From a virus, in the IMG/VR virus record IMGVR_UViG_3300023082_000259, positions 1 to 40,479 of that record: 40,479 nt of DNA; one strand, given 5' to 3'. The position numbers and the translations under genes are program-made. Shown here piece by piece: positions 1-40,479 of the stretch. A model generated the notes under the pieces. It did not search any database and was not told the origin of the DNA. It saw only the letters and a program-made list of their open reading frames with translations. How positions within the stretch are numbered: the stretch's first letter is position 1; the number at the start of each line of letters is the position of its first letter.

Positions 1-231
1 ATGAGCCGCACCCTCACCGCTCGAGGTGTCAGGACGATGCTCGCTCGTCGCGGCGTCGATCACTCGACACTGACGGTCACCGAGACCGTCAACGCCAACG
101 AGGTACGGATCGAAGGACCGAAGGAAGCACGTCGGGCTGCCACGCACGCGCTCGTGCTGAACTACGAGAACACCGCCCCCGGCATGTCAGTCGCGCCGTA
201 CCCGGAACACGACTTCCTCATCCGCCGCTGA
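1..231 (+). CDS. Small protein of unknown function (76 aa)
   Basis: Not recognised with certainty. The ORF opens with ATG at the first base of the window, so a longer upstream start cannot be excluded. The protein is small, soluble and mixed alpha/beta in appearance, with a basic N-terminal half (LARRGVDHSTLTVTE), a GPKEARRAA stretch near the middle and a short end rich in proline and aromatic residues (VAPYPEHDFL). It has no membrane segment or cysteine motif. It lies in the same orientation as the recombinase at 418, with a GC hairpin between them. In a circular form it would sit between the repressor gene and the integrase. I infer a phage accessory gene; a host flank gene is the alternative. 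Confidence 0.55.
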   Translation: MSRTLTARGVRTMLARRGVDHSTLTVTETVNANEVRIEGPKEARRAATHALVLNYENTAPGMSVAPYPEHDFLIRR

Positions 232-399: not shown

Positions 400-428
400 T
401 AGACGCCCACCTGAGAGATGAGTAATTT
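400..428 (+). promoter_or_regulatory. Candidate promoter of the plus-strand recombinase
   Basis: TAGACG (400-405) and TAATTT (423-428) are separated by 17 bases, with 7 bases between the -10-like box and ATG at 436. This would give a transcript starting at or very near that ATG, i.e. a leaderless mRNA, which is common in actinobacteria. If correct, translation starts at 436 (MTSPTPTPV) rather than 418. The boxes match the consensus only partly. Confidence 0.35.
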
Positions 429-1380
429 CCGAAGCATGACTTCCCCAACTCCCACACCAGTCCCCGCCCATCCCCCGGGTTCCACAGACTTCGCGATCGT
501 CGACCGCTGGACGACCTGGCTTCGCGGCGAGTCGTACTCCGACAGCATCGTCCGCGACCGGCCCGAGCTCGTCCGCCGCGCAGCCACCCGCCAGGGCATC
601 GCACCGGAGTACCTCACCGTCGACGACGTCCTCGCGTTCCTCGGGAGCTCGAACATCGCCCGCTCCTCGAGGTACACCTACCACGAGTCGCTCAAGGCAT
701 GGTTCCGCTGGCTCGTCGCCGTCGGCGTGCGAGACGACAACCCCATGGAGGACCTCAAGACTCCGAAGCCAGGCCGCCGGGTCGCGCGCTACATCACGAT
801 CGAGCACGTCACCCACCTACTGAACTCTGGAGTCCGATCCCGGACACGCGCGATGGTGCTGCTGATGGGCTACCAAGGGCTGCGGGTGTCCGAGGTCGCG
901 AAGTTCCGCGGTGACGACATCGATCACATCTCGAAGCAGGTTCGCGTGATCGGGAAAGGGGACTCCGAGTGGATCCTGCCGCTGCACCCACTGATCGAGG
1001 AGATGTCGGCCGCGTACGGGCGCGGCTGGTGGTTCCCGCAGTACGGCGCGAACCGTCTCGGCACGACTGGCGGCCACATCCTGTCCGGGTCGGTGACGAC
1101 GACGGTCGGGGGTGCGATGAAGCGCGCTGGTGTCCCTGGTTCGGCGCACTCGCTGCGGCATTGGCACGCGACCGAGATGCTTCGTGCTGGGGTCGACATC
1201 CGTGTGATTCAGCAGCTGATGCGTCACGAGTCGATCGCGACGACGCAGCTGTACACGCACGTCGACGACACGCAGCGTCGTGCGGGGCTGATGCTGCTCC
1301 CGGACGTCACGCAGCCTGCCGTGAAGCCCGGACCCGGCATGAAGGAGTGGAACGGACTCGACGGCAGGCTGGTCGCGTAG
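418..1380 (+). CDS. int: Tyrosine recombinase / phage integrase (XerC/D-like)
   Basis: Site-specific recombinase that would integrate and excise the phage by strand exchange at attachment sites. Numbered from ATG 418 (320 aa), an N-terminal core-binding (SAM-like) domain spans about 25-110 and the catalytic domain about 125-300. All catalytic positions are visible: R156 (GLRVSE), K180, H244 and R247 (HSLRH), H270 (LMRHES) and nucleophile Y279 (TQLYTH). No arm-type N-terminal domain is obvious, so it is a short XerC/D-type enzyme. ATG 418 has a weak GAGAG upstream; ATG 436 fits a leaderless start. It converges with a second recombinase at 1391. Because it is co-oriented with the repressor at the right edge, it is the likelier partner of the tRNA-Gly attachment site; that is inference. 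Confidence 0.88.
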   Translation: MSNFRSMTSPTPTPVPAHPPGSTDFAIVDRWTTWLRGESYSDSIVRDRPELVRRAATRQGIAPEYLTVDDVLAFLGSSNIARSSRYTYHESLKAWFRWLVAVGVRDDNPMEDLKTPKPGRRVARYITIEHVTHLLNSGVRSRTRAMVLLMGYQGLRVSEVAKFRGDDIDHISKQVRVIGKGDSEWILPLHPLIEEMSAAYGRGWWFPQYGANRLGTTGGHILSGSVTTTVGGAMKRAGVPGSAHSLRHWHATEMLRAGVDIRVIQQLMRHESIATTQLYTHVDDTQRRAGLMLLPDVTQPAVKPGPGMKEWNGLDGRLVA

Positions 1381-1390
1381 GACGCAGCTG

Positions 1391-2323
1391 TCAGGCGCCA
1401 CCCATCAGGTAGCCGGCGACCATGTACGAGGCGTGGCGGTCGAGGTTGAGCCGGGCCCGGTCGTACCGCATGGTCGTGCGGGGGTCGGAGTGCCTGGCCG
1501 CGGTCTGCACGTCACGGAGCGGGACGCCGGCGTCGAGCGCCGACGTCACCATCCCGTGGCGGAGCAGGTGGGGCCGGGCGGGCTTCGTGATGCCGCACTG
1601 CTTCGCCAGGCGGCGGACGGCCTTCCTGACGGCGGCACCGGTGTACGGCAGGCCGTTGGACTCGCGGAGGCACAGCACGCCGTGGGTGCGGTCGCCCTTC
1701 GCGCGCATCAGGGCGCGGAGCACCGGCGCCGGGAGCGGGATCGTCGCGGCCTTGTTGCCCTTGCCGACGAGGCGCAGAACGGTGTGGGACCGCTCGATCT
1801 CACCGAAGTCCTCGATCCGGACACCGGTGGCTTCGGAGAGGCGGAGGCCGAGGATGGCCATCAGGACGATCAATGCATGGACGGAGCCCGACTCGGCCTC
1901 AGCAGCCTTGATCATCGCGGTGATCTCCGTGCGGTCGAGACCGATGATCGACGCCTCGTCGCGGTAGTACGCAGGGCGGCGGACGCGACGGGCCGGGTTC
2001 TTCTCGATCAGCCCGTCCTCGTTCGCGAAGTCGTAGTAGCCCATCAGCACGCCGACCTTCGCGTGGATGGTCGACATGTGGTTCTTGCGCTCGTGCTCGC
2101 AGTACCGCATGTACAGCTCGAGGTGCGCGCGGGTGGCGTCGAGCGGGTCGAGCTCGTGCTGTGCGCACCACTCGAAGAAGATCTTGAGCAGGTAGCGGTA
2201 GTTGTCCAGGGTGGCCCCGGAGAACCCGGCCAGGTAGTTCATGGCGGCGAGTTCGTGTCGGGCGATCGGTCCTCGGTGATCTAGCACCGGCATTGCAGTA
2301 GCGTGCAGCACAGCGTTCTCCAT
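1391..2323 (-). CDS. Second tyrosine recombinase
   Basis: A complete second tyrosine recombinase, clearly different from the first. Counted from ATG 2323 (310 aa), the core-binding domain is about 25-110 and the catalytic domain about 130-300. Catalytic residues are R161 (GLRLSE), K188, H252 and R255 (HLLRHG), H278 (ARHSD) and Y287 (MRYDRA). The frame stays open to 2422. ATG 2323 has no good ribosome site, while GTG at 2311 has GGAG about 7 bases upstream, so 2311 may be the real start. It lies beyond the terminator that closes the late operon and therefore needs its own promoter. It could be the phage integrase, an excision or dimer-resolution enzyme, or a resident recombinase of another element. 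Confidence 0.85.
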   Translation of the reverse strand: MENAVLHATAMPVLDHRGPIARHELAAMNYLAGFSGATLDNYRYLLKIFFEWCAQHELDPLDATRAHLELYMRYCEHERKNHMSTIHAKVGVLMGYYDFANEDGLIEKNPARRVRRPAYYRDEASIIGLDRTEITAMIKAAEAESGSVHALIVLMAILGLRLSEATGVRIEDFGEIERSHTVLRLVGKGNKAATIPLPAPVLRALMRAKGDRTHGVLCLRESNGLPYTGAAVRKAVRRLAKQCGITKPARPHLLRHGMVTSALDAGVPLRDVQTAARHSDPRTTMRYDRARLNLDRHASYMVAGYLMGGA

Positions 2324-2445
2324 TCCACGGATGGTGGGCGTCAGAGCCGTTCGGTGTTGGTAGCACCGGGCGGCTCGCCCGTTTGGTCCCTCGACGTTAC
2401 GTCGCGGCCAGGACAGTTTCAAGAGACGTCGTCACAAACGACGAA

Positions 2446-2477
2446 AGCGCCCCACCCCGGTGAAGGGGTGGGGCGCT
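2446..2477 (-). terminator. Intrinsic terminator of the late/lysis operon
   Basis: A perfect 13-bp stem (AGCGCCCCACCCC at 2446-2458 with GGGGTGGGGCGCT at 2465-2477) encloses a 6-base loop. On the minus strand it is followed by TTTCGTCGTTTG, a moderately T-rich tail. It starts 18 bases after the stop codon of the last lysis-region gene (2495) and separates the late operon from the minus-strand recombinase. It is the best terminator in the window. Confidence 0.85.
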
Positions 2478-39715: not shown

Positions 39716-39801
39716 CGTGCAATCACTCCTGCGAACGCGAGGAGGAGCATGAGGGCACCGGCGCTGACGAGCAGGTCGCCGAGGCGATCACTGCTCTTCA
39801 C
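39712..39801 (-). CDS. Tiny membrane protein (29 aa)
   Basis: GTG 39801 overlaps the TGA of the Cro-like gene as GTGA, and its TGA overlaps ATG of the exonuclease gene. After KSSDRLGD it is one hydrophobic helix (LLVSAGALMLLLAFAGVIAR). The two overlaps argue for translation. It would be the second protein made in the early operon. Function unknown. Confidence 0.5.
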   Translation of the reverse strand: MKSSDRLGDLLVSAGALMLLLAFAGVIAR

Positions 39802-40022
39802 TGCGTGACCTCTGCCGGGAGCAGCGTCGCGACGGGGATCTCGAGGATCCCTGCGATCTTGTGGACCTCGTCGACGTCGAACGCGATCTTCCCGAGAAGA
39901 CGCTTCGAGAGCTGGCTCTGCGTGAAGCCCATCTTCTCGGCGAGCCACATCTGCGACTGGTCGCGTCTGACCAGTTCAGCGCGGAGGTTCCTGCCGACGA
40001 CCTGAGAGGGTGTGATGTCCAT
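39798..40022 (-). CDS. Cro-like HTH regulator (74 aa)
   Basis: First gene of the leftward early operon. Residues 14-65 form an XRE-type helix-turn-helix (LRAELVRRDQSQMWLAEKMG, recognition helix FTQSQLSKRLLGK). Start chosen at ATG 40022, 7 bases after a -10-like TATGGT, so the mRNA may be leaderless; an upstream ATG at 40034 would add four residues but has no ribosome site. It resembles the repressor at 40141 in the second half of the domain (SQLSKRLLGKIAFDVDEVHK versus SQFSKRLRGIIPLDINEISA). It probably competes for the same operators as in lambda CI/Cro. Confidence 0.78.
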   Translation of the reverse strand: MDITPSQVVGRNLRAELVRRDQSQMWLAEKMGFTQSQLSKRLLGKIAFDVDEVHKIAGILEIPVATLLPAEVTQ

Positions 40023-40029
40023 GCGCCAC

Positions 40030-40060
40030 ACCATATGTCTCTAAGAGACATGTCTGTCAA
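40030..40060 (-). promoter_or_regulatory. Early leftward promoter with operator between its boxes
   Basis: On the minus strand TTGACA (40055-40060) is a perfect -35 box; the -10 is TATGGT (40030-40035, spacing 19) or CATATG (40032-40037, spacing 17). The perfect palindrome ATGTCTCTAAGAGACAT (40035-40051) fills the spacer, and AGACATGTCT (40046-40055) overlaps its right end. A repressor bound here would block polymerase. TATGGT ends 7 bases before ATG 40022. Confidence 0.72.
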
Positions 40061-40115: not shown

Positions 40116-40173
40116 TCCCTCACGCACTAAAGTGCTGGTCATGACCACAATGAGCGCGCTCCCTAGTGAGGGA
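40116..40173 (+). promoter_or_regulatory. Repressor promoter and operators
   Basis: GCACTAAAGTGC (40124-40135) is a palindrome whose centre TAAAGT (40128-40133) stands 7 bases before ATG 40141 and may be the -10 box of a leaderless repressor mRNA; no good -35 was found. TCCCTCAC (40116-40123) is repeated inverted as GTGAGGGA (40166-40173). The second copy is itself part of the palindrome TCCCTAGTGAGGGA (40160-40173) inside the coding region, suggesting autoregulation. Confidence 0.5.
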
Positions 40174-40479
40174 TCTCCGAGCGCAACATTCGCAGCAGAA
40201 GTTCGTGCCCTCATGGGCCGCTACCAGGTGACCCAGGCACAGCTTGCCGAGGTGCTCGACATGACGGCGAGCCAGTTCAGCAAGCGCCTACGCGGAATCA
40301 TCCCGCTCGATATCAACGAGATCAGCGCCATCGCGCGCTTCTTCGGCGTCACGATCGGCGAATTGTTCGGCGAAACGACGACCGCCCCCCAGCCACGAGG
40401 GCCGGAGGGCGGACAGAGCGGACGACGAGACTCGAACTCGCAACATTCTGCTTGGAAGGCAGAGACTCTAGCCAATTGA
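40141..40479 (+). CDS. Phage repressor with 3' end in the attachment site (112 aa)
   Basis: The frame opens at GTG 40132; ATG 40141 is preferred because it fits a leaderless promoter. From there an XRE-type HTH occupies about residues 18-70 (MGRYQVTQAQLAEVLDMTAS; QFSKRLRGIIPLDINEISAI). There is no dimerisation or autocleavage domain. The last 20 residues (from about GQSGRR to ETLAN) are encoded antisense to the tRNA-Gly gene, and the TGA at 40477-40479 is inside it. Recombination at this tRNA would therefore change the protein's C-terminus. It is divergent from the Cro-like gene and is the probable immunity repressor. Confidence 0.72.
   Translation: MTTMSALPSEGSPSATFAAEVRALMGRYQVTQAQLAEVLDMTASQFSKRLRGIIPLDINEISAIARFFGVTIGELFGETTTAPQPRGPEGGQSGRRDSNSQHSAWKAETLAN
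40417..40479 (-). tRNA. tRNA-Gly(UCC), 3' part, cut by the window end
   Basis: On the minus strand: D-loop end TCAATTGG, anticodon stem TCTGC/GCAGA (40459-40463 and 40447-40451) with loop CTTCCAA and anticodon TCC (40454-40456), T arm GCGAG-TTCGAGT-CTCGT (40425-40441), acceptor 3' strand CGTCCGC (40418-40424) and discriminator T (40417). The 5' acceptor strand lies beyond the window. CCA is not encoded. Confidence 0.88.
40417..40479. other. Candidate attachment junction (attR) in tRNA-Gly
   Basis: Tyrosine integrases often use the 3' half of tRNA genes, with the phage copy restoring the gene. Here the tRNA 3' end points into the phage genome and the 5' part lies outside, the expected orientation for such a junction. 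No matching copy was found in positions 1-417 or 1381-2500, so the core length and the other junction cannot be defined from this window. Confidence 0.6.

What the first reader, a model, noticed from the sequence alone, without database searches (positions are those of the whole stretch)
40132..40479. Repressor gene ends inside the tRNA-Gly attachment site: candidate integration-dependent immunity switch
Seen: a small HTH repressor frame on the plus strand runs antisense into tRNA-Gly(UCC) and stops inside it. It is divergent from a Cro-like gene, and a co-oriented tyrosine integrase stands at the other edge (418-1380), so that on a circular genome the order would be repressor, attachment site, integrase. 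Known: in mycobacteriophages such as BPs, Brujita and Charlie, attP lies within the 3' end of the repressor gene; the viral form carries a C-terminal degradation tag and integration replaces it, stabilising the repressor. Inferred: the same logic operates here at a tRNA-Gly site in a different actinobacterial host. The viral C-terminus cannot be seen in this window.
Basis: partly seen in the sequence, partly recalled or inferred. Interest (0 to 1): 0.88.

Follow-up and report, generated by a model that had tools for sequence, protein, structure and literature searches.

The report
Prophage repressor switched by integration
A bacterial virus has its repressor gene split by its own insertion site in a host tRNA gene, so that inserting into the chromosome very probably swaps a self-destruct tail on the repressor for a stable end; this is a new example of a switch already known from related viruses.

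Summary
A Cro/C1-type repressor gene (40132-40479, +), divergent from a Cro-like gene, reads antisense through the 3' 63 nt of a tRNA-Gly(UCC) gene (Rfam, 41 bits) and stops in its D-arm. A Brujita-family, arm-less tyrosine integrase stands at the other edge.

The viral C-terminus and attR are not in the window, whose edges are gene ends. Relatives supply the missing half:
- IMG/VR contig L142 (integrase 47-48% identical) carries the other junction at the same tRNA-Gly: 41 bp identical, ending inside the anticodon loop, then the displaced repressor tail in the same frame ending ...VASAA*, a small overlapping ORF, and int.
- The closest integrase relatives (57-59%) have repressor tails ending ...EVAA* and ...AVAA*.
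- All 25 distinct viral-form repressors surveyed end -AA or -VA; prophage-side forms end in host tRNA sequence (HYE*; here KAETLAN*).
- The window's integrase ends -RLVA.

This is very probably integration-dependent immunity, as in mycobacteriophages BPs, Brujita and Charlie, and reported also for Gordonia phages and Bifidobacterium prophages. It is a new member of a known kind at a tRNA-Gly site. This phage's own viral tail, its degradation and the immunity are inferred.

The parts
40132..40479 (+). Repressor gene, prophage form (115 aa from GTG 40132, or 112 aa from ATG 40141). By comparison with L142, residues 1-108 are phage-encoded and residues 109-115 (KAETLAN) plus the stop come from the host tRNA gene.
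   Evidence: HTH by Pfam and PHROG; core boundary by comparison with L142
40417..40479 (-). 3' 63 nt of tRNA-Gly(UCC); the 5' end lies outside the window
   Evidence: Rfam RF00005, 41 bits, 5' truncated
40415..40455 (+). Attachment core (41 bp), predicted; its right end lies inside the tRNA anticodon loop (40452-40458)
   Evidence: Identical in the attR of L142 and in L139; end repeats of two other proviruses (43-44 bp) also stop in the anticodon loop
39798..40034 (-). Cro-like HTH gene, divergent from the repressor
   Evidence: PHROG 4583, Pfam BetR; 35% identical to the repressor over 65 aa
40035..40051 (.). Perfect 17-bp palindrome ATGTCTCT-A-AGAGACAT in the cro-rep intergenic region; candidate operator
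   Evidence: only copy in the window; 0.05 expected by chance
1..231 (+). Small ORF (76 aa) between attachment site and int on the circle. It begins ATGA, the 4-nt overlap with the viral repressor stop seen in Guacamole, Obliviate, Phishy, TillyBobJoe and (as GTGA) L142.
   Evidence: no homologue found
418..1380 (+). Arm-less tyrosine integrase of the Brujita kind; C-terminus RLVA (ssrA-like)
   Evidence: Pfam PF00589 1.6e-23; 40% identical to Brujita Int; alignment A1; tree

Best explanation
This is an integration-dependent immunity switch. On the circular phage genome the order is cro < > rep, with the attP core inside the 3' end of rep, then a small ORF, then int. The viral repressor would run through the core into a phage-encoded tail with an ssrA-like end (-AA or -VA) and be degraded. 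The integrase, itself ending -LVA, recombines the 41-bp core with the host tRNA-Gly(UCC) gene, crossing over at the anticodon loop. In the prophage, rep loses its viral tail and is completed by antisense host tRNA sequence (KAETLAN, then TGA), giving a stable repressor, while int is moved about 40 kb away from the rep promoter. Shown here: the prophage form, the tRNA, the gene order, the integrase family and its C-terminus. Shown in relatives: displaced viral tails, the core and its boundary. Inferred: this phage's own viral tail, proteolysis, immunity.
For: Repressor antisense through tRNA-Gly. L142: same core, integrase 47-48% identical, displaced viral tail in the same frame ending VASAA*, then a GTGA-overlapping small ORF and int. 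L041 attR tail ending EVAA*; L039 intact attP with repressor ending AVAA*. 25 of 25 distinct viral-form repressors end -AA or -VA, against 2 of 48 window ORFs. Provirus G009: prophage-side repressor ends HYE*, while the attR-side tail ends KVPA*. Same T-arm frame in Brujita, Guacamole, Purky, Phishy, Obliviate, TillyBobJoe and Butters. Integrase ends RLVA and groups with L039, L040, L041 and L142/L147 at 100/99. Published mechanism: PMC4557955.
Against: The window's own attP and viral C-terminus are not visible. A related phage with the same core in its repressor gene, G032/L139, has a tail ending PPR* and another integrase, and Arthrobacter phage Galaxy has the gene order without tags (PMC5513430), so a repressor ending at a core does not guarantee a tag. 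No promoter was recognised between cro and rep.
Confidence: 0.9

Rival explanations
1. An ordinary tRNA-integrating prophage in which the repressor gene merely happens to abut and overlap the attachment core, with no change in repressor stability.
For: G032/L139 shows a repressor running into the same tRNA-Gly core with a tail ending PPR*; phage Galaxy has the gene order without tags (PMC5513430).
Against: The window's integrase is of the integration-dependent family, ends RLVA, and its nearest relatives L039, L041 and L142 all have tagged repressor tails. G032 has a different integrase (26% identical).
Confidence: 0.07
2. Integration at tRNA-Gly is driven by the second recombinase (1391-2422), and int1 is a passenger.
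For: The second recombinase is intact (Pfam) and conserved: 91% identical in G032, about 54% in Arthrobacter phages Zaheer and Bridgette. G032 also carries the tRNA-Gly core.
Against: It is convergent with int1, and in Zaheer, Bridgette and G032 it accompanies other, dissimilar integrases. L142 uses the same tRNA-Gly core with an int1-type integrase next to its attR.
Confidence: 0.05
3. Assembly or trimming artefact: the repressor-tRNA overlap arises because the record edge is wrong.
For: The record ends exactly on gene boundaries and its flanks are not held.
Against: The overlap lies inside the record, in a coherent tRNA, and is mirrored by the reciprocal junction in L142.
Confidence: 0.02

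Closest known systems
Integration-dependent immunity of mycobacteriophages BPs, Brujita and Charlie (Broussard et al. 2013; PMC4557955)
   Same: Divergent cro/rep, repressor gene crossing the attachment core in a tRNA gene, co-directional arm-less integrase next to it on the circle, ssrA-like integrase end, truncated prophage repressor
   Different: Site is tRNA-Gly(UCC); a 76-aa ORF lies between core and int; the last seven repressor residues and the stop are read from the host tRNA; a second tyrosine recombinase is present; function not tested
Gordonia phages Guacamole, Obliviate, Phishy, TillyBobJoe (PMC5559632, PMC4929511)
   Same: Same order including a small ORF overlapping the viral repressor stop by 4 nt; same reading frame across the T-arm; integrases 34-40% identical
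   Different: Other tRNA sites and hosts; these records show the viral form, the window shows the prophage form
Bifidobacterium prophages Bb423phi2 and 689b-1 (PMC6109161)
   Same: Provirus ends carry int and repressor; the viral form reconstructed in that paper has 18 extra residues with an ssrA-like tag
   Different: Different phage lineage and host; recalled from the paper, not compared in sequence here
IMG/VR contigs L039, L040, L041 and L142
   Same: Closest integrases (47-59%); repressor tails crossing the tRNA and ending AVAA, EVAA or ASAA
   Different: L039-L041 use another tRNA (anticodon TGT); L142 shares the tRNA-Gly core but only its attR side was read

Membership tests
[quoted passage not shown]
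   Repressor frame covers 40415-40455, identical to the core at the L142 attR; attP itself is not visible
Integration-dependent immunity (BPs/Brujita type) | Repressor divergent from a Cro-like gene, and co-directional with the integrase that follows it on the circle | tested here: met
   the join of the two ends is inferred
[quoted passage not shown]
   attR is not in the record; in the three nearest lineages the tail ends AVAA, EVAA, ASAA
Integration-dependent immunity (BPs/Brujita type) | Prophage repressor lacks the tag | tested here: met
   Ends KAETLAN*
Integration-dependent immunity (BPs/Brujita type) | Arm-less tyrosine integrase with an ssrA-like end | tested here: met
   Aligns with Brujita Int from its start; C-terminus RLVA; 40% identity
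Integration-dependent immunity (BPs/Brujita type) | Only the prophage form is stable and gives immunity | not testable with these tools
   Needs an experiment

The most novel reading that the evidence does not exclude
The host tRNA-Gly gene supplies not only the stop but seven functional residues (KAETLAN) of the prophage repressor, so that the choice of tRNA site tunes repressor activity or stability, and constitutive repressor transcription runs antisense through most of a host tRNA gene.
Probability: 0.1. Interest if true: 0.5.

Novelty: new member of a known kind. Interest (0 to 1): 0.36.

Why it matters
It extends a simple, regulator-poor lysogeny switch to another phage lineage and to a tRNA-Gly site. 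The comparison also shows a strict pattern across this integrase family: viral repressors cross the tRNA antisense and end -AA or -VA, while prophage-side forms end in host tRNA sequence. That makes such switches recognisable from one provirus end alone, and gives a 41-bp core that could serve as an integration site for genetic tools.

Tried and rejected
Search for a second copy of the tRNA fragment at the left edge: none. Search with the full repressor in viral contigs returned only the tRNA-coded tail, mostly tRNA-Gly genes. A 38-bp core pattern that reached past the crossover found nothing; moving it to the core side found L139 and L142. ORF1 has no convincing homologue; its one match, in L038, lies inside an unrelated 3238-aa ORF. 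Genomes related to the host could not be drawn for a virus record. Promoter and terminator scan between cro and rep: nothing. An Rfam scr5239 match at 40284-40412 (-) is far below its gathering score (18.5 against 64 bits) and was rejected. The Rhodococcus plasmid integrase L034 (43%) is a near relative of int1, but no repressor is annotated beside it.

Full report
OBSERVATION. The window is a virus record of 40,479 bp that begins on an ATG and ends on a TGA. Its edges therefore look like gene-based trimming of a provirus and are not att sites. At the right edge an HTH protein gene (40132-40479, +) reads into the antisense of a tRNA-Gly(UCC): Rfam RF00005 matches 40417-40479 on the minus strand with 41 bits and is cut only at its 5' end. 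The repressor's stop is in the tRNA D-arm. The protein has a Cro/C1-type HTH domain over residues 19-86 and matches PHROG 2328, a phage repressor family, over residues 6-109. A Cro-like gene is divergent (39798-40034), with a perfect 17-bp palindrome next to its start. The tyrosine integrase at 418-1380 is co-oriented with the repressor. The body of the record holds terminase, portal, protease, capsid, tape-measure, tail, RecT-like and exonuclease genes, so it is a substantially complete prophage.

WHAT IS MISSING. The host could not be identified. The structural genes are nearest to Arthrobacter phages of the Bridgette/Judy group (portal 57-59% identical).

KNOWN SYSTEMS FOR COMPARISON. The integrase is about 40% identical to Brujita Int and matches hundreds of Mycobacterium and Gordonia phage integrases. 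In Brujita, Guacamole, Obliviate, Phishy, TillyBobJoe, Purky and Butters the repressor crosses a tRNA T-arm antisense in the same frame as in the window (TCG AAC read as Ser-Asn), continues into a phage tail ending -AA or -VA, and is followed by int; in the four Gordonia phages a small ORF overlapping the repressor stop by 4 nt stands in between. The published system works by ssrA-like degradation of the viral form and its loss on integration (PMC4557955; Gordonia: PMC5559632; Bifidobacterium: PMC6109161).

THE RECIPROCAL JUNCTION. A scan of viral contigs with the core side of the window's tRNA found L142. It reads: host sequence, then 41 bp identical to window 40415-40455, then, in the window's repressor frame, SGRRDSNSQHSAW|DADSSVVSIFPGQLDVASAA*, then a small ORF starting at an overlapping GTGA, then an integrase 47-48% identical to the window's. 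Identity with the window stops inside the anticodon loop, where the 43-44 bp end repeats of two other proviruses also stop. By this boundary, residues 1-108 of the window's repressor are phage-encoded and residues 109-115 (KAETLAN) plus the stop come from the host tRNA. The window's first bases, ATGA, fit the same overlap, which predicts the viral stop at window 2-4 (inference).

NEAREST LINEAGES. L041 (integrase 57-58%) is an attR with displaced tail ...VVDDKEVAA*. L039 (59%) has its attP intact, with a 128-residue repressor ending ...AIAVAA*. A tree puts window int1 with L039, L040, L041 and L147 (the integrase of L142's record) at 100/99 support.

FAMILY SURVEY. Among loci carrying this integrase family, 25 distinct viral-form repressors that cross an antisense T-arm were recovered; 22 end -AA and 3 end -VA. 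Three further rows of that call (L046, L063, L069) are a host-side read or reads in another frame and are not counted. By comparison, 2 of 48 ORFs in the window end so. Close phage relatives are among the 25, so they are not 25 independent events. On the prophage side, repressors end HYE* inside host tRNA sequence in L123 and L134; at L122 and L125 the record ends at the crossover, at PAD*. Provirus G009 shows both halves: HYE* at one end, and a displaced tail ending KVPA* at the other. Of 62 distinct integrase C-terminal pentapeptides, 43 end in Ala; the window's ends RLVA.

CAUTIONS. G032/L139, a phage sharing 90-96% identical segments with the window, carries the same tRNA-Gly core at the end of a repressor gene read in another frame and ending PPR*, with a different integrase. 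A core at the end of rep is therefore not proof of a tag. The literature has a similar exception, Arthrobacter phage Galaxy (PMC5513430). The second recombinase in the window is conserved in Zaheer, Bridgette and G032 beside other integrases and is not the likely integrase for this site.

VERDICT. The step from sequence to function (degradation of this phage's viral repressor, immunity only after integration) is inferred.

Noticed in passing
window 1391-2422 (-): A second, intact tyrosine recombinase convergent with int1; 91% identical in phage contig G032 and about 54% identical in Arthrobacter phages Zaheer and Bridgette, always beside another integrase. Its role is unknown.
   Followed up: partly
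G032 (L139/L152, L151): A 50-kb phage record with segments 90-96% identical to the window has the same tRNA-Gly core at the end of its repressor gene, but in another reading frame, with a tail ending PPR* and an unrelated integrase oriented outward at the other record end. This does not fit the standard scheme.
   Followed up: partly
L107 9576-9971: A repressor next to an int1-type integrase runs into tRNA-Lys(TTT) sequence in the sense orientation (5' half of the tRNA) and ends LSA*, the reverse of the usual antisense arrangement.
   Followed up: no
L094, L095, L098, L113, L067, L076, L037: A second class of these repressors crosses the tRNA T-arm in another reading frame (ARTWDLRI in place of SN) yet still ends -AA, so the tag is kept while the tRNA-coded peptide differs.
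   Followed up: no
window 2437-2477: A 41-bp stretch with a strong G+C-rich hairpin beside the second recombinase is 100% identical in G032; probable terminator.
   Followed up: no
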